From Alistipes indistinctus YIT 12060 (GTDB taxonomy: Bacteria > Bacteroidota > Bacteroidia > Bacteroidales > Rikenellaceae): a DNA stretch of 64,000 nt. The stretch covers positions 2,418,001 through 2,482,000 of the forward strand of contig NZ_CP102250.1 of the NCBI RefSeq assembly GCF_025144995.1, in the 5' to 3' direction. The notes beneath the pieces are model-generated. The model did no database searches. It saw only the letters and a program-made list of their open reading frames with translations, and was not told where the DNA came from. The translations under genes and the position numbers were made by a program. Numbering within the stretch: the first letter of the stretch is position 1; every line of letters begins with the position of its first letter. Shown here piece after piece: positions 5,347-12,030 of the stretch.

Positions 5347-6966
5347 TTACAGGGCGGCGATCTGGGCGTCCATCCACGCTAAGCGGTTCGCGTAGTTGGT
5401 TTGCAGCGCGGCCACCGCATCGTTCCACGAAAGCTTCTCGTCGTGGTTGACGTCCGAGCGGGCGATTTCGTATTCCCACATACCCCAGTTCTGCCACGCC
5501 GCTTTCTGGATGTAGGCGGCTTCGCTGTCGATGAAGGCGGGAATCTGCTCCAGAGAGGGCCTGATCGCCTGCCAGCGCTCCCGGACGCGCTGCCGGAAGG
5601 CCGGGTCGCGGAAGAGCCGGGGGAACCACGAGTGGTTGTTCGCGCTTTCGTCCTTCAGCAGGAAACTGCGGCTGTCGATGAAGGTGGTCAGGTCGAAATC
5701 CCACACCGGGCCCGCTTTCAGCTTGCCGAGCCGGTCCTTGTTCATGTAGCAGCTGCCCGGCAGCCGCGTGTCCTGGTTGTGCGTGAGTTCCTGCACGATC
5801 CACCAGTCGATGAACGAATCGGTGTCGAGCAGTTCGGCGTATTCGCCTGCGGCGGGGAAATCCGGGGCGTAGAGCAGTGCCTCGACCGCGTTGAAGTAGT
5901 CTTTCATGTAGTTGAACTGCGCGGAGTTGAGTCCTTCTTCGTCGGGTTCCTTGAAGTTGACGGGCAGGTCGGCGAAGGCCGAACGGAACTTGTTCACTTC
6001 GTCGAAATAACGGTCCAGCTCGAGCAGGTAACCGCCCGTGATCGCATCGCCCGAGGTTGCTGCCGGATCCATTTCCGCGAGGGCCACCCGGTTTTTGTCT
6101 ATCTTGATCTGCTCGGTGAGCAGGTAGTTGCCCAGGAACCGCCCGTTGAGGATTACGTCCACATAGCGGCTGTCGGGCGTCCAGTCCAGTGCCGTCGCAT
6201 GCTTCGCGATCTCGAACGCGACGCGGTTGCGCAGCAGGGTTTTGTCGCTCGCATTGGCCAGCAGTGCCCACCGTTTATGTTTGTTCATGCCCATAACCGG
6301 TTGTTTCTCGGCGAGCTTGATCGCATAGGGCTTTTTGTCTTTCGCCCAGCTGTTGTTGCCGCGCCCCTTGATTTCGATCTGTCCGGAAAACTCGTCGCAG
6401 TTGTTCTCCTGCCGGTCGATGCGCATCGTACCCTGGATCCATGTCTCCTTCGAGGAGACGGGCGCGGCACCTTCGGTGGAGAGCACCAGCAGCGGCAGCC
6501 CCGAATAGGAGTGGTTGCGCACCGTGACCTTGAACTCCCGGAATTGGCCCGCGGGGGTGTAAATCCGGTAGGCGATCGCTTTGGTGAAGTCGTTGACCGT
6601 AACGCCGCTTTTTTGCTCGGTGCTGCCGACGGTCACCTTCGCGCCGTTCGTCTCAAACGATGCGGCGAGCTGGGTAAGGTCGGTCCGGTAGTAGAGGATG
6701 TCGCCCGAAAGGGTGTTCCCGGAGGCGGTGAGCGCCACCTCGGAATAGATCTGGCCGTTGTGTTCCGGGGCGAACGAGAAGGAGAGGAATTTGAGCCTGG
6801 CCGGATCTGTCTCGACGACGGGTTTGTTATCGTCCTTGTCGTCGTCCTCCTGCTCCTGGTCTTTACCGGGAGTGGGTTTGGGGGCGGGTTGCTTGACGCA
6901 GGACGGAAGGCTTGCCAGCAACAGCAGGACTGTCAGGATGAGTAGTTTTGACAGGATGGTTTTCAT
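5347..6966 (-). CDS. CotH-family protein kinase-like lipoprotein
   Basis: 539 residues from the ATG at 6966, chosen because a lipoprotein signal starts there (LLLLASLPSC, Cys23); the frame continues upstream to 7014 without a better start. After an acidic linker (residues about 30-50) comes an N-terminal beta domain (about 55-150, with LKFLSFSFAPEHNG), then a CotH domain. CotH proteins have a protein-kinase-like fold and the spore-coat member phosphorylates coat protein. Family hallmarks are visible: IKGRGNNSWAKDKKPYAIKL with a candidate ATP-binding Lys, WALLANASDKTLLRN, and GPVWDFDLTTF whose DFD is a probable metal-binding motif. In Bacteroidota these are secreted proteins of unknown substrate. 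Confidence 0.85.
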   Translation of the reverse strand: MKTILSKLLILTVLLLLASLPSCVKQPAPKPTPGKDQEQEDDDKDDNKPVVETDPARLKFLSFSFAPEHNGQIYSEVALTASGNTLSGDILYYRTDLTQLAASFETNGAKVTVGSTEQKSGVTVNDFTKAIAYRIYTPAGQFREFKVTVRNHSYSGLPLLVLSTEGAAPVSSKETWIQGTMRIDRQENNCDEFSGQIEIKGRGNNSWAKDKKPYAIKLAEKQPVMGMNKHKRWALLANASDKTLLRNRVAFEIAKHATALDWTPDSRYVDVILNGRFLGNYLLTEQIKIDKNRVALAEMDPAATSGDAITGGYLLELDRYFDEVNKFRSAFADLPVNFKEPDEEGLNSAQFNYMKDYFNAVEALLYAPDFPAAGEYAELLDTDSFIDWWIVQELTHNQDTRLPGSCYMNKDRLGKLKAGPVWDFDLTTFIDSRSFLLKDESANNHSWFPRLFRDPAFRQRVRERWQAIRPSLEQIPAFIDSEAAYIQKAAWQNWGMWEYEIARSDVNHDEKLSWNDAVAALQTNYANRLAWMDAQIAAL

Positions 6967-7202
6967 GGTGGGAAGGTATCGGTAGTATGACAAAAATAGA
7001 TTATTTTTTGTCAATAATCAAGCTGGAAATAAGTAACATGCAGGTTAGGAATCGGCTGTTGTGCGAAGTTCCGGAGGCGTAATGAGTAATCGGGGAACGG
7101 GATTCTGGAGCACCGGATACTGGAGCACGGGGCCGTCAGGGTAGCGGACGCTTCCGGGCAGGGGAGTTGCGGGGTTATGCGGGGCAGTACAGGAACAAAA
7201 GA

Positions 7203-7264: not shown

Positions 7265-8317
<1,053 letters not shown>

Positions 8318-8320
8318 TCA

Positions 8321-8352
8321 CAAAAGTACATAAAAAACAAAAACCCTGCAAA
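8321..8352 (-). promoter_or_regulatory. Promoter of gapA
   Basis: On the minus strand TACTTTTG (8328 to 8321) fits TAnnTTTG, and TTTG (8352 to 8349) is the -33 element with 20 bases between them, an almost ideal Bacteroidota housekeeping promoter. The leader to the gapA ATG is about 45 bases. Confidence 0.8.
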
Positions 8353-8673
8353 AAATAATATTAAATTTTTTTATTAAAGTGCGGGCTGCGGTGCCGTACC
8401 CGTTGGCCGGGTTATAATCAGCGGGTTGTATTTTTTTTGTACGGCCGGATTTTGCTGCTGGCGGGGGCTGTTGTTGCCGCTGTGACGGCGGGGATCGAGC
8501 GGTGGCCGCGATGGGGGAAAGAGGGGAGAAAAGAGGTATCCGGCCGTGTCGGCTGCACGGTACGTCTGCCGGTATTTCCGTTGGCATGGAAAGCGGAAAC
8601 CTCCGGATCCGTTGCCGCGACTGGCTTTGCGCGGTTTTTAAGAATATTTATTTTGTATTTGATAATCAGAAAG

Positions 8674-8704
8674 TTGCGATTGCTTCGCGGTTTTCTTATC
8701 TTTG
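8674..8704 (+). promoter_or_regulatory. Promoter of the C10 protease module
   Basis: TTG at 8674-8676 and TATCTTTG at 8697-8704 are 20 bases apart, matching the Bacteroidota pattern. The ATG of the protease gene follows 57 bases after the -7 element. Confidence 0.7.
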
Positions 8705-8760
8705 TTTCAGGCACCGGTTGGTGCTGCTGTGAAATTGTTTAATCCCCAAACCTATCGCTT

Positions 8761-10230
8761 ATGAGAAGAGCTTTATGGTTAGTGGGGCTGCTGCTGTTGG
8801 CGGCGGCCTGTACCCGTGAGCCCGGCATCTCTCCGGGAGACGGAAATTCCGACCCTGCCGGAGCGTCGCGCAATCCGGTGATGTCGATGGAGCGCCTGCA
8901 GGAGCTGGCGCTCGAGCTTCCCGATGATTTTTCCGACGGCCTCTCCACACGCTCCGCGCGCAGGATGATCCGCGAAGTGGTTCCGGTGACCGATTTTATC
9001 GACGGTTCGTTGCTGGAACCTTTCGCCGCGTCTGTCGCGGCATCCGGTACCAAAGCCGCGGCCACGCGTGCCGGAGGAGTTGCCCCTGCGAATGCCTCCC
9101 CTGGCTCCCTTTCTGCCGAGGCGGATGTCGCCGCGACGCTGGGGCGTATCTATGTGGTCAATTACGAGGACGACGCGGGCTTCGCGATCCTGTCGGCCGA
9201 CCGGCAACTGCCCTCGGTGCTGGGATATGCCGACAGCGGCAACATCACCGACACGATGACCAATCCCGGCATCAAACTCTTCCTGGAGCGGCTGCCCGAT
9301 TTCGTGGCGACTTCGCTATTGTGGGATTCGCTGACCGATCCCGATCCTCCGGTCGATCCCGATCCGGGCGGCGGAGGCACCGACCCCGGGCCGGCGCCCG
9401 ATCCCTCCGATACGACCGTGGTGTACCGCTATCATCACAACCAATTCGTATGCACGACAACTGAGGGCCCTTATGTAAAAGTTGAATGGGGGCAGGGCTA
9501 TCCATTTAACAACAGAGTAACAACATTATGCCCTAATAAAATGACAGGTCGTGCACCGGCAGGGTGTACGATAACGGCTATGTTACAAATCATGTCTTCC
9601 CATTGCTATCCGACCTCTTACATTGAAATTCTTGATCTGACACGTGTAGAATTAGACTGGGCCACTTACATCTCTTATAAAAGAGGGCTTGACTTCGGCA
9701 GGGATCCTGCCGCCGAAAATAGAATAGCACGATTTACACATATGCTGGGGATTAATGCAAGTATTGACTATGGCTGTAACGGAAGCGGTGCTGCCGTGAA
9801 GAATATAAAAAAAACGTTTGAAGGTTACGGATATCATACCGACGGTGTAATGAGCTATACCTGGGATCGGGTCAGGGAAGATATTGATCATGGCCTACCG
9901 GTGTTTACGGCAGCTACTCCCCTGAGCGGAGACCGTCATGCTTGGGTAATAGACGGCTATAAATACGGTTACTATCTTACCGATGTGTTTATGGATGTGT
10001 ATGATGCTAACGGTAATTTAATCAGGGGATATTATCTGGGTGTCGAGCATGAATATCACACGCTGGCCCACTGCAACTGGGGTTGGGATGGAGATGGCAA
10101 CGGTTATTTCCTAAACGATTGTTACTCTCCGAGTGGTCCGATTATCCGGGATGAAGAAACGGGTAGTGCTCCGGCGAGTTCTCGTCCTTATATAAAGGAT
10201 TTTGAAATTATCAAAAACGTACATCCATGA
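8761..10230 (+). CDS. C10 family (streptopain-type) cysteine protease lipoprotein
   Basis: 489 residues. The lipoprotein signal ends in LLAAAC (Cys17). Residues about 35-190 resemble the Spi/streptopain propeptide (IYVVNYEDDAGFAILSADRQ), a Pro/Gly/Asp linker follows at about 196-218, and the mature catalytic domain runs from about 225 to 489. Active-site residues are visible: Cys269 in RAPAGCTITAMLQIM, His393 in GDRHAWVIDGY, and the HCNWGWDGDGNGYF tryptophan motif. C10 enzymes are secreted papain-fold proteases, including those of Bacteroides. Its stop overlaps the ATG of the next gene by four bases (ATGA), implying translational coupling. Base composition falls sharply near 9420: bases 8821-8880 are 68% GC, 9961-10020 only 33%. 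Confidence 0.93.
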   Translation: MRRALWLVGLLLLAAACTREPGISPGDGNSDPAGASRNPVMSMERLQELALELPDDFSDGLSTRSARRMIREVVPVTDFIDGSLLEPFAASVAASGTKAAATRAGGVAPANASPGSLSAEADVAATLGRIYVVNYEDDAGFAILSADRQLPSVLGYADSGNITDTMTNPGIKLFLERLPDFVATSLLWDSLTDPDPPVDPDPGGGGTDPGPAPDPSDTTVVYRYHHNQFVCTTTEGPYVKVEWGQGYPFNNRVTTLCPNKMTGRAPAGCTITAMLQIMSSHCYPTSYIEILDLTRVELDWATYISYKRGLDFGRDPAAENRIARFTHMLGINASIDYGCNGSGAAVKNIKKTFEGYGYHTDGVMSYTWDRVREDIDHGLPVFTAATPLSGDRHAWVIDGYKYGYYLTDVFMDVYDANGNLIRGYYLGVEHEYHTLAHCNWGWDGDGNGYFLNDCYSPSGPIIRDEETGSAPASSRPYIKDFEIIKNVHP

Positions 10231-10943
10231 AAAGATTACTGATCGCATTACCGTTTTTGGCAGCCTTTGCAACAGCGTGTTCGGATGAGCCGATCCCTTC
10301 ACCGCCACCTGCATCGGAACAATTGATAACGGAATATGACGATCCGCAAGAGATGATCTTCGGTTCATGGGCCAAAGAAATTGATCCTGTGCAACCGAAT
10401 CCGTTCACTGACGCGGTGTGGGTCATCTGTTCCGGAGGATGGAATCCGTTGCATCGGGGGCAAGGCTGGATTTCCAGGTCGTCTGATCCGGAACGTTTCG
10501 ACTCATTGGTGAAAGCGCATGGGGATACCCATTGGAATCGGAGCGATCCGATCAGCATTCCCTGTATGTTCCGTGTAACGGTGTCACTGCATGTGGTCTG
10601 CAATCGGGATTATGATGCTGACCATCCGACCGGCACATTGCTGGACGACATACTGACTGTCAAGTATCGGTCTGCGGACCAGATACTGGTAGACGGTGAA
10701 TATGTATGGACAGGAGTGACTGACCAACAACTTCAAAAAGGATATACAGGCTATGAATTCGATGCCCCGCTAACCGAATTTAACAGAAAACGGCTCAAAT
10801 TGTTGTCGATGTTGTTTACTTTCTGGCTTAACAAAGCTCCGACTGAGACGGGGGATTACGTCTTCACCTGCACCTGGATCAATGAGGACGGTAAAAAGCT
10901 GACCGCCTCGACTGATCCGTTGCGGATTCAGGGGGAACGATGA
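10227..10943 (+). CDS. Lipoprotein partner of the C10 protease, copy 1 (unknown family)
   Basis: 238 residues; lipoprotein signal with Cys18 (AFATAC). I do not recognise the family. The mature part contains YDDPQEMIFGSW, RFDSLVKAHGD, CNRDYDADHPTGTLLDD and ends KLTASTDPLRIQGER. It is clearly homologous along its whole length to the protein at 11235-11921. It overlaps the protease stop by four bases, so the two are made together. Small coupled genes next to C10 proteases in Bacteroides and Streptococcus encode inhibitors of the protease, but those are shorter; an inhibitor, chaperone or co-secreted role here is inference. Its last codon and TGA appear to come from the protease remnant that follows. 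Confidence 0.8.
   Translation: MKRLLIALPFLAAFATACSDEPIPSPPPASEQLITEYDDPQEMIFGSWAKEIDPVQPNPFTDAVWVICSGGWNPLHRGQGWISRSSDPERFDSLVKAHGDTHWNRSDPISIPCMFRVTVSLHVVCNRDYDADHPTGTLLDDILTVKYRSADQILVDGEYVWTGVTDQQLQKGYTGYEFDAPLTEFNRKRLKLLSMLFTFWLNKAPTETGDYVFTCTWINEDGKKLTASTDPLRIQGER
10863..10937 (+). repeat. Direct repeat, left copy (3' end of lipoprotein copy 1)
   Basis: About 75 bases beginning TTCACCTGCACCTGG nearly match 11841-11915, with a handful of third-position differences. The two copies mark the ends of the duplicated unit, 978 bases apart. Confidence 0.8.
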
Positions 10944-11238
10944 CGGAGGTCATGCATGGGTTGTTGACGGCTATAAAACGGAACGTAATCCGGTCGATGT
11001 GTTTATGGATGTGTACGACAGCAACGGCAACCTGCTCCGGGGGTATTATCTGGGCATTGAAAACGAGTATCATGATTTCGTGCATTGCAACTGGGGCTGG
11101 GACGGGAACGGCTATTTCCTGCACACGTGGTTGTTTCCCAAGAGTCCGGAGATACCGGACGCGGGGACGGGGCATGCGCATGTAAGCATTCGCCCGTATA
11201 CGAATGATTTGAAAATTATAAAAGGAATCTGGCGATGA
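10936..11238 (+). pseudogene. Remnant of a second C10 protease (C-terminal 100 residues only)
   Basis: An open frame running from the end of lipoprotein copy 1 encodes NDDGGHAWVVDGY, then VFMDVYDSNGNLLRGYYLG and HCNWGWDGNGYF, matching residues about 389-489 of the protease at 8761-10230. It keeps the active-site His and the Trp motif but lacks the catalytic Cys, the propeptide, the signal and a start codon in the expected place (first ATG at 10999). Its stop overlaps the next gene's ATG by four bases, exactly as in the intact module. It is best explained as the 3' stub of a duplicated protease gene after deletion of the rest. Confidence 0.85.
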
Positions 11239-11921
11239 GTACACGAATATTCATTTTTCTGGTTTGTTGCATGGGAATGTTCGGGTGTAAGGAGTGGTAT
11301 CCTGAGCCGACCTATCCGAATTTGATAAAAGAATACGATGATCCCCAGCAGATGAAATTTTACGGCTGGAAGGGGAACGCCAAAAACCCGGCAGGGCCGG
11401 TTGCCTTGGAGGATGTGATGTGGGTCGTCGGGAGCGACCATGAAGGTCTTATTTCGCAGGTGACCAATTCCAACCGTTTCGATTCGCTGGTTGTGGCGCA
11501 CGGCGACGATCATTGGAATAGATGGTTGCAGGTTGGGGGCTATATGTTCCGTTTGACGACAGGTTTGCATATCGTGTGCGACCGGGATTACGACGCCGGT
11601 CATCCGGCGGGGACGTTGCTGGACGACCTGATTTCCGTTTACTACAAGGGCCTCGACGATTTTCTGGTTCATGGCGAATATATGCTGCATTTCGTTACGG
11701 AGCAGCAGAAGAGAAATAAGTGGAGTTTTTATGAATTCGAAGAAATGCTGTCGGAGTTTAACCTGAAACGGCATAAACTGATCGGATCCTCTTTCGTTTT
11801 CAGGTTGAAAAAAGCTCCCGCAGTAACCGGGGAGTATGTGTTCACCTGCACCTGGACCAACGAGGACGGCAAAAAGCTGACCGCCTCGACCGATCCGTTG
11901 CGGATTCAGGGGGAGGAGTGA
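11235..11921 (+). CDS. Lipoprotein partner of the C10 protease, copy 2 (unknown family)
   Basis: 228 residues with a lipoprotein signal (MGMFGC, Cys18). Homologous to the protein at 10227-10943: shared blocks include YDDPQQMKFYGW, RFDSLVVAHGDDHWNR, CDRDYDAGHPAGTLLDD, EFNLKRHKL and the near-identical tail EDGKKLTASTDPLRIQGE. The N-terminal halves have diverged more than the C-terminal ends. It has been kept intact although its own protease is only a stub. That suggests selection on the lipoprotein itself, for example as an inhibitor of the remaining protease, but this is inference. Confidence 0.8.
   Translation: MSTRIFIFLVCCMGMFGCKEWYPEPTYPNLIKEYDDPQQMKFYGWKGNAKNPAGPVALEDVMWVVGSDHEGLISQVTNSNRFDSLVVAHGDDHWNRWLQVGGYMFRLTTGLHIVCDRDYDAGHPAGTLLDDLISVYYKGLDDFLVHGEYMLHFVTEQQKRNKWSFYEFEEMLSEFNLKRHKLIGSSFVFRLKKAPAVTGEYVFTCTWTNEDGKKLTASTDPLRIQGEE
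11841..11915 (+). repeat. Direct repeat, right copy (3' end of lipoprotein copy 2)
   Basis: Partner of the repeat at 10863-10937. High DNA identity confined to the 3' end suggests recent duplication or gene conversion between the two lipoprotein genes. Confidence 0.8.
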
Positions 11922-11961
11922 TTCCGGACCGTTTGCATGCGGGACAGACCGCGCAAAAGAG

Positions 11962-11990
11962 AACAGACCTGCTCGTGGGGCAGGCCTGTT
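11962..11990. terminator. Terminator hairpin between lipoprotein copy 2 and the MlaF-like gene
   Basis: Arms AACAGACCTGC (11962-11972) and GCAGGCCTGTT (11980-11990), one A-C mismatch on the plus strand that becomes a G-T wobble on the minus strand. It lies between two convergent genes and can end both transcripts. Confidence 0.7.
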
Positions 11991-12030
11991 TGTGTCTTGT
12001 CGCTATGTCCTGTGCCGTTATGCCACCGGC

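What the first reader, a model, noticed from the sequence alone, without database searches (positions are those of the whole stretch)
8761..11921. Duplicated [C10 protease + lipoprotein] module whose second protease survives only as a stub
Two consecutive units have the same layout: a C10 protease gene whose stop overlaps the ATG of a lipoprotein gene by four bases (10227-10230 and 11235-11238). In unit 2 only the last 100 or so codons of the protease remain, including the His and Trp motifs but no catalytic Cys. Both lipoproteins are intact, lipidated (Cys18 in each) and homologous. Seen directly: the order, overlaps, homologous motifs and loss of the protease. Established: C10 proteases in Bacteroides and streptococci are often coupled to small inhibitor genes. 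Inference: this larger lipoprotein family (about 210 mature residues) may be a different kind of inhibitor, immunity or co-secreted partner, and keeping two copies against one protease suggests dosage or specificity. This is my best candidate for an undescribed system.
Basis: partly seen in the sequence, partly recalled or inferred. Interest (0 to 1): 0.72.

Follow-up and report, generated by a model that had tools for sequence, protein, structure and literature searches.

The report
Swappable protease-and-shield cassettes in gut bacteria
In these gut bacteria a secreted protease gene is paired with a lipoprotein gene, the two appear to be swapped as one block, and lipoproteins are sometimes kept after their protease is lost, as expected if they protect the cell from that protease, though this has not been tested.

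Summary
Observation confirmed: an intact SpeB-like C10 protease (8761-10230), a lipoprotein (10227-10943), an in-frame 3' protease stub with His and Trp motifs but no Cys (to 11238), and a second lipoprotein (11235-11921). The lipoproteins match no Pfam, NCBIfam or PDB family. Of 105 lipoprotein clusters, 40 have a C10 gene or piece just upstream on the same strand; 65 do not. (1) In two related genomes, promoter and propeptide are nearly identical between units, identity collapses at or within the catalytic domain, stays low into the lipoprotein, and returns at its 3' end; the window shows the same 3' anchor. (2) Protease tails lie beside lipoproteins in four other genomes; 11 extra or solo lipoproteins (six from one site) carry a short protease 3' scar, controls 0 of 372. 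(3) At one orthologous site, one species has protease plus two lipoproteins; a sister keeps both lipoproteins and the scar, not the protease. (4) One genome holds lipoproteins resembling partners of protease types it lacks. Reading: cognate inhibitor or immunity lipoproteins exchanged with the catalytic domain; the stub is a leftover. Inhibition is untested; genome-level co-occurrence is not significant.

The parts
8761..10230 (+). P1: full-length C10 (SpeB-like) protease precursor: lipobox LAAAC (by eye), Spi-like propeptide, catalytic domain with Cys269, His393 and NWGW
8761..9429 (+). head of P1 (leader and propeptide), 64.7% GC, third-position GC 73%
   Evidence: 30 of 33 units (window included) have higher fourfold-site GC in the head than in the catalytic domain
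9430..10230 (+). catalytic domain of P1, 44.7% GC, third-position GC 41%; the part that varies together with the lipoprotein in related arrays
10227..10943 (+). lipo1: 238-aa lipoprotein, Cys18, proposed cognate inhibitor/immunity protein of P1
10869..10936 (+). conserved 3' end of lipo1, 64 of 68 nt identical to 11847-11914 in lipo2; proposed recombination anchor
10903..11238 (+). stub: open frame with the C-terminal part of a second C10 protease (His and Trp motifs, no Cys half); protease-like reading from about 10936; in-frame internal starts GTG 10999 and ATG 11005
11235..11921 (+). lipo2: 228-aa lipoprotein, Cys18, without a full protease of its own; dN/dS against lipo1 0.21 (dS saturated at 2.1)
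8270..12030 (.). 3.76-kb stretch between a GAPDH gene and an MlaF-like ATPase gene that holds the module; the two genes are close neighbours without it in 7 of 8 genus relatives (the eighth, a 69% complete assembly, had no GAPDH match)
   Evidence: names of the flanking genes recalled, not from a call

Best explanation
The locus is a protease/immunity-type module. P1 is made as a lipidated SpeB-like zymogen; lipo1, probably translated by coupling at the ATGA overlap, is an envelope lipoprotein that binds and blocks the catalytic domain of matching type and so protects the producer. Catalytic domain and lipoprotein are inherited and exchanged as one cassette between a conserved head (promoter, leader, propeptide) and a conserved lipoprotein 3' end. 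The stub plus lipo2 are what is left of a second unit: its protease was truncated, its lipoprotein kept because it still protects against that protease type made by other cells. Shown by comparison: order, recurrence, the head/cassette/3'-anchor pattern in two genomes, scars, and lipoproteins present without protease at a site where a sister species has both. Inferred: that the lipoprotein inhibits, that inhibition is type-specific, that the window unit arose by exchange, and why lipo2 is retained.
For: C10 gene or piece just upstream of the lipoprotein, same strand, in 40 of 105 clusters; 38 of 45 C10-to-lipoprotein gaps between profile hits are 33 nt or less, the largest 219. G200 pair: 0.94-1.00 into the catalytic domain, then 0.49-0.93, then 1.00. 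By protein, G064 array heads 86-92%, catalytic domains 44-48%, adjacent lipoproteins 49-50%. 3' anchor in 14 of 43 within-array pairs, 9 of them from the G064 array, 6 arrays in all, P. loveana included. Protease tails beside lipoproteins in four other genomes. Scars of 8 bits or more: 8 of 68 solo, 3 of 20 extra, 0 of 372 controls. Orthologous site: protease in G233, absent in G240, G230 and G231, lipoproteins and 3' scar kept. G166: one protease of this group and four lipoproteins; no. 1 is 75% to the partner of the closest G077 protease (82%), no. 2 is 79% to the partner of another G077 protease, no. 3 is 76% and 67% to partners of two G200 proteases; within the array 33-55%; G166's two other C10s are 29-36% to these proteases. 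dN/dS of the G166 extra copies against relatives 0.13-0.32.
Against: No inhibition data. Genome-level co-occurrence not significant. Across 30 units the lipoprotein follows the propeptide at least as well as the catalytic domain (patristic rho 0.40 against 0.31; partial 0.32 against 0.17); an identity-based test gave rho 0.04, p 0.24 for catalytic domain and lipoprotein, and 0.20, p 0.001 for propeptide and lipoprotein. 60 of 68 solo and 17 of 20 extra lipoproteins score under 8 bits for a scar, extra ones as a set do not differ from controls (p 0.10), and 6 of the 11 scars are from one orthologous site. The lipoprotein beside the L126 tail is itself broken across frames, and the one after the L112 tail is not the partner expected from that tail. 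No surface-export motif enrichment (38 of 124 against 7 of 20). The GC drop is so general (30 of 33 units) that it need not mean exchange. In the window exchange is inferred only from GC and the 3' anchor; no second strain was available. Several key genomes are draft or metagenome assemblies (G166 88% complete).
Confidence: 0.6

Rival explanations
1. Plain tandem duplication followed by deletion of most of the second protease; the lipoprotein may be an inhibitor, but there is no cassette exchange, and lipo2 is a neutral leftover or raises dosage.
For: Intact tandem arrays exist (L091), and the junction at lipo1's end looks like a simple deletion (my reading).
Against: Does not explain near-identical heads with collapsed catalytic and lipoprotein identity, the recurring 3' anchor, or G166 lipoproteins resembling partners of other proteases. 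Low dN/dS argues against neutrality, though most divergence may predate truncation.
Confidence: 0.15
2. The pair faces the animal host: the protease cuts host proteins, and catalytic domain and lipoprotein diversify under host inhibitors or antibodies; the lipoprotein is only a self-protection shield.
For: Known C10 proteases such as SpeB and interpain A act on host proteins (passages of PMC2873492). A co-varying inhibitor would be needed here too.
Against: Does not readily explain lipoproteins in genomes with no C10 match (30 of 70, some of them incomplete assemblies) or those resembling partners of proteases of other species, which fit protection from neighbours better.
Confidence: 0.2
3. 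The lipoprotein is not an inhibitor but a chaperone, anchor or co-secreted cofactor of the protease.
For: Strict order and gene overlap fit any partner.
Against: A cofactor should be lost with its protease; instead it persists without it at one orthologous site and in genomes without a C10 match.
Confidence: 0.12
4. The lipoproteins have a function of their own and sit beside C10 genes only through shared mobility.
For: 65 of 105 clusters lack C10; solo copies showed no recurrent neighbour family (largest group 3); linked and solo copies are partly sorted on the tree (24 changes against a shuffled mean of 44.5).
Against: Fixed position directly downstream of C10, scars upstream of some solo copies, at least 24 switches between linked and solo on a FastTree tree of 133.
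Confidence: 0.08

Closest known systems
Bacteroides C10 proteases with staphostatin-like inhibitors (Bfp/Bfi, Btp/Bti)
   Same: C10 zymogen gene next to a co-transcribed, exported, often lipidated small gene thought to inhibit it (passages of PMC2873492 and PMC3462683).
   Different: Those inhibitors are 116-138 aa; the window lipoproteins are 238 and 228 aa and match no Pfam family. Cassette exchange, orphan copies and scars are not described in the passages read. A direct sequence comparison with Bfi/Bti was not made.
SpeB/Spi of Streptococcus pyogenes
   Same: P1 resembles the SpeB zymogen over propeptide and catalytic motifs.
   Different: Spi is a propeptide analogue; the lipoproteins do not match Inhibitor_I69.
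Rhs toxin/immunity loci with orphan C-terminal fragments
   Same: Full gene followed downstream by displaced toxin-end fragments with their own immunity genes (passages of PMC3967940).
   Different: Here the toxin-like part is a secreted papain-like protease; the window stub lacks half the active site; antibacterial action is unproven.
Orphan immunity gene arrays (rAID) of gut Bacteroidales
   Same: Arrays of diverged immunity genes without their effectors (abstract of PMC12247911).
   Different: Those are recombinase-associated and answer type VI effectors; no recombinase was noticed in the window insert, but none was searched for by profile.

Membership tests
C10 peptidase (PF01640) | family profile above the curated cut-off | tested here: met
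   P1 98.6 bits, stub 27.8 bits, cut-off 26
C10 peptidase (PF01640) | catalytic Cys and His, NWGW | tested here: met
   P1 yes; the stub has His and NWGW but no Cys half, so it is not an enzyme
C10 peptidase (PF01640) | SpeB-like propeptide | tested here: met
   PF13734 49 bits in P1
C10 peptidase (PF01640) | proteolytic activity | not testable with these tools
   no bench data
Spi / Inhibitor_I69 | lipoprotein matches the inhibitor profile | tested here: not met
   no match for lipo1 or lipo2, nor among 11 family members
Staphostatin-like Bfi/Bti | 116-138 aa | tested here: not met
   238 and 228 aa
Staphostatin-like Bfi/Bti | staphostatin (lipocalin-like) fold | tested here: inconclusive
   two models (pLDDT 84.9 and 87.9) gave no PDB match at E <= 0.001; no staphostatin among the 50 rows listed for either
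Polymorphic toxin/immunity with orphan ends | conserved head, variable end plus partner gene | tested here: met
   G064 and G200; in the window only indirect
Polymorphic toxin/immunity with orphan ends | orphan end fragments with partner gene | tested here: met
   window and four other genomes; in one of the four the lipoprotein is broken, in one it is cut by the contig end
Polymorphic toxin/immunity with orphan ends | toxicity to bacteria and specific immunity | not testable with these tools
   bench test needed
rAID orphan immunity | recombinase beside the array | not tested
   no recombinase profile was run on the window or on other arrays

The most novel reading that the evidence does not exclude
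SpeB-like C10 proteases of gut Bacteroidales form a polymorphic antibacterial system: catalytic domain and lipoprotein immunity gene are swapped as a block, and the orphan lipoproteins, some marked by protease 3' scars, are an inherited record of protease types met in kin and neighbours.
Probability: 0.35. Interest if true: 0.88.

Novelty: new variant of a known kind. Interest (0 to 1): 0.7.

Why it matters
C10 proteases are mostly discussed as host-directed virulence factors in the papers seen here. A protease whose catalytic domain diversifies and travels with a dedicated lipoprotein, and lipoproteins retained without it, would point to competition between gut bacteria as a driver of this family, would define an unnamed family of likely cysteine-protease inhibitors, and gives ready-made matched and mismatched natural pairs for testing specificity.

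Tried and rejected
Known-family match for the lipoproteins: none in Pfam, NCBIfam (one 18.9-bit hit far under its 290-bit cut-off) or PDB sequences; DUF5034 gave E 0.045 for one of 11 members and occurs in 1 of 119 order genomes, so it was dropped. Genome-level co-occurrence: not significant. Natural C10-lipoprotein fusion for a complex model: none among the frames of the 93 loci plus window. Specific co-divergence of catalytic domain and lipoprotein over deep distances: not separable from the propeptide. A recurrent partner gene of solo lipoproteins: none. Surface-export motif: no enrichment. Dosage as the reason for two copies: disfavoured by divergence. A second copy of the window head in its own genome: only a 73% match over 124 nt at the other C10 locus. 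The stub-against-P1 dN/dS printed used a wrong frame for P1 and is not used. The order-wide search lists 91 of 393 genomes, but most of its matches are under 30 bits over part of the profile, so it is not used as a count. The look at genes after the 600-aa C10 group read only loci whose match lay on the + strand and so covers part of the 30.

Papers: PMC2873492, PMC3462683 and PMC3967940 seen as passages, PMC12247911 as abstract and outline, others as search listings. No print description of this lipoprotein family or cassette pattern turned up in the searches, which cover open PMC papers only and were read as listings.
Full report
WHAT IS THERE. All coordinates of the finding hold. P1 is a complete C10 precursor: lipobox, Spi-like propeptide, catalytic domain with the active-site motifs. 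Lipo1 and lipo2 are 53% identical lipoproteins with Cys18. Between them lies an in-frame C10 tail with His and NWGW but without the Cys half. The junction is informative: the ends of lipo1 and lipo2 are nearly identical over 68 nt, up to CAGGGGGA; from about there lipo1's end lies in DNA that reads GNDDGGHAW in the stub frame, which I take for protease although the part before HAW was not aligned to P1. This is what a deletion from the end of lipo1 into a second protease would leave.

THE LIPOPROTEIN FAMILY. It has no match in Pfam, NCBIfam or PDB sequences. Members share a conserved acidic motif around D-Y-D-A-x-H-P-A-G-T-x-L-x-D. Two models (pLDDT 84.9 and 87.9) are rich in strands and have no PDB match at E <= 0.001. 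In 225 genomes of the same family at 80% completeness or more, 70 have the lipoprotein and 113 a C10; overlap is 40, not significant. Part of the reason may be a separate C10 group of about 600 aa: in the 30 loci brought in with the best C10 matches only three weak lipoprotein-profile hits (14-18 bits) turned up, whose orientation to the C10 I did not work out.

NEIGHBOURHOODS. I fetched 13 loci and 80, chosen by lipoprotein hits except L020 and L113, which are C10 loci; the hit list was capped and not all listed hits were fetched. I added 10 of the 29 named loci (the others have contig lengths of loci already fetched) and the window. They give 105 lipoprotein clusters and 2 C10-only clusters: 40 with C10, 54 solo, 11 solo but within 1 kb of a contig or locus end. 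Where C10 is present it is upstream on the same strand, with one to four lipoproteins after it. Porphyromonas loveana DSM 28520 has C10 plus two lipoproteins, Rikenella microfusus C10 plus one. Lipoproteins in one array are mostly diverged (43 pairs, median 0.47, range 0.33-0.98).

CASSETTE PATTERN. Three tandem units in G064 are 0.84-1.00 identical in blocks of 90 columns from the promoter to near the end of the propeptide, with one block at 0.75 for unit 1 and, for unit 3, 0.73-0.74 in the block just before the catalytic start; identity is 0.39-0.76 through catalytic domain and lipoprotein and returns to 0.89-0.97 at its end. A pair of units in G200 is 0.94-1.00 identical into the first part of the catalytic domain, 0.49-0.93 from there to within the lipoprotein, and 1.00 at its end. 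Usually a catalytic domain is better conserved than a propeptide (recalled); here it is the reverse among close copies. The 3' anchor recurs: 14 of 43 within-array pairs, from 6 arrays but 9 of them from the G064 array, have at least 0.85 over the last 66 nt with under 0.75 before (that alignment is permissive, its floor being about 0.70). The window gives 0.88 and 0.75 there, so it misses that cut-off narrowly; on a codon alignment it is 61 of 69 against 341 of 612. Fourfold-site GC is higher in the head than in the catalytic domain in 30 of 33 units, of 35 examined, 2 without a head; the window is a strong case (0.80 and 0.44). Because the drop is so general it may also reflect something other than exchange.

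ORPHANS AND SCARS. C10 tails lie beside lipoproteins in L112 (G200), L126 (G227, the lipoprotein itself broken across frames), L147 (G064) and L100 (G087, short, 36 model positions); two further tails (L094, L127) are cut by contig ends and not counted. The L112 tail is 87% identical over 75 residues to a full protease in G077, but the lipoprotein after it, cut by the contig end, is not that protease's partner, so that place is a mosaic. A profile of the last 24 residues of 29 C10 proteins scores 8 bits or more just upstream of 37 of 45 adjacent lipoproteins (expected, since it was built from such proteases), 3 of 20 extra and 8 of 68 solo ones, and 0 of 372 control genes. Six of these 11 are from the one orthologous site below, two from the G064 array, two from G111 and one from G236, so they are not 11 independent events.

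ONE SITE, FOUR SPECIES. Between the same flanking genes (an agmatinase-like and an NhaA-like gene by eye, recalled), G233 has C10 plus two lipoproteins; G240 has the same two (95% and 87% of nucleotides) and no C10 by tblastn, but keeps the last 14 codons of it; G230 has two lipoproteins and G231 one, again after the scar. Retention of the scar suggests loss of the protease rather than its arrival.

A LIBRARY OF LIPOPROTEINS. G166 has one C10 of the group and four lipoproteins. The first resembles (75%) the partner of the G077 protease to which its own is closest (82%). The second is 79% to the partner of the other G077 protease (68% to G166's). The third is 76% and 67% to the partners of two G200 proteases (56% and 52%). 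The fourth has no close match. Heads tell another story: G166's head is closer to the second G077 unit (0.82) than to the first (0.64), so here the lipoprotein follows the catalytic domain, not the head. G166's two other C10s are unrelated to these types (29-36%), though the assembly is 88% complete. Low dN/dS for the extra copies (0.13-0.32, one with saturated dS) suggests maintained function. Over all 30 units, however, this specific link cannot be separated from overall relatedness.

THE WINDOW IN ITS GENUS. GAPDH and the MlaF-like gene are neighbours, 108-554 nt between the matches, in 7 of 8 relatives (the eighth lacked a GAPDH match), with no convincing remnant of C10 or lipoprotein (best E 0.010). 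The module therefore appears specific to this genome among those sampled. No C10 match was found in the 6 genus relatives that the family survey listed, while three of them (G001, G004, G008) have lipoproteins; the G008 copy has an in-frame stop. The own genome has a second C10-lipoprotein pair (catalytic domain 71% and lipoprotein 64% to those of R. microfusus) and a third C10 split by a TAA.

READING. I take the lipoprotein as a cognate inhibitor or immunity protein (about 0.75 likely), exchanged with the catalytic domain as a cassette (about 0.7 for the arrays, lower for the window), and the stub with lipo2 as the remainder of a second unit whose lipoprotein is kept. That the protease acts on other bacteria is a further step (about 0.35-0.4). 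The closest parallels are orphan Rhs fragments and orphan immunity arrays of Bacteroidales; in function the closest are the C10/staphostatin-like pairs of Bacteroides, from which this family differs in size, and whose sequences I did not compare directly.

Noticed in passing
L020 2655-3605 (own genome C1:2517654-2518604): Third C10 gene of the window genome, broken by an in-frame TAA and without a lipoprotein of the family beside it.
   Followed up: partly
L019 2483-4559 (own genome C1:2292482-2294558): Second intact C10-lipoprotein pair of the window genome, related to that of Rikenella microfusus.
   Followed up: partly
L068, L074, L077, L084, L085, L089: In at least 6 of 30 loci a separate C10 group of about 600 aa is followed within 12-28 nt by a lipoprotein of about 245 aa that looks fimbrillin-like by eye and does not match this family's profile.
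   Followed up: partly
L111, L109, L110, L158 (orthologous site): Short intergenic repeats of about 80-90 bp recur around the lipoprotein genes and may help rearrangement.
   Followed up: no
window 5347-7014 (- strand): A gene that looks CotH-like by eye (recalled, not searched).
   Followed up: no
L093 5605-6240 (reverse-strand coordinates): A broken lipoprotein between two intact C10-lipoprotein units in G077.
   Followed up: no
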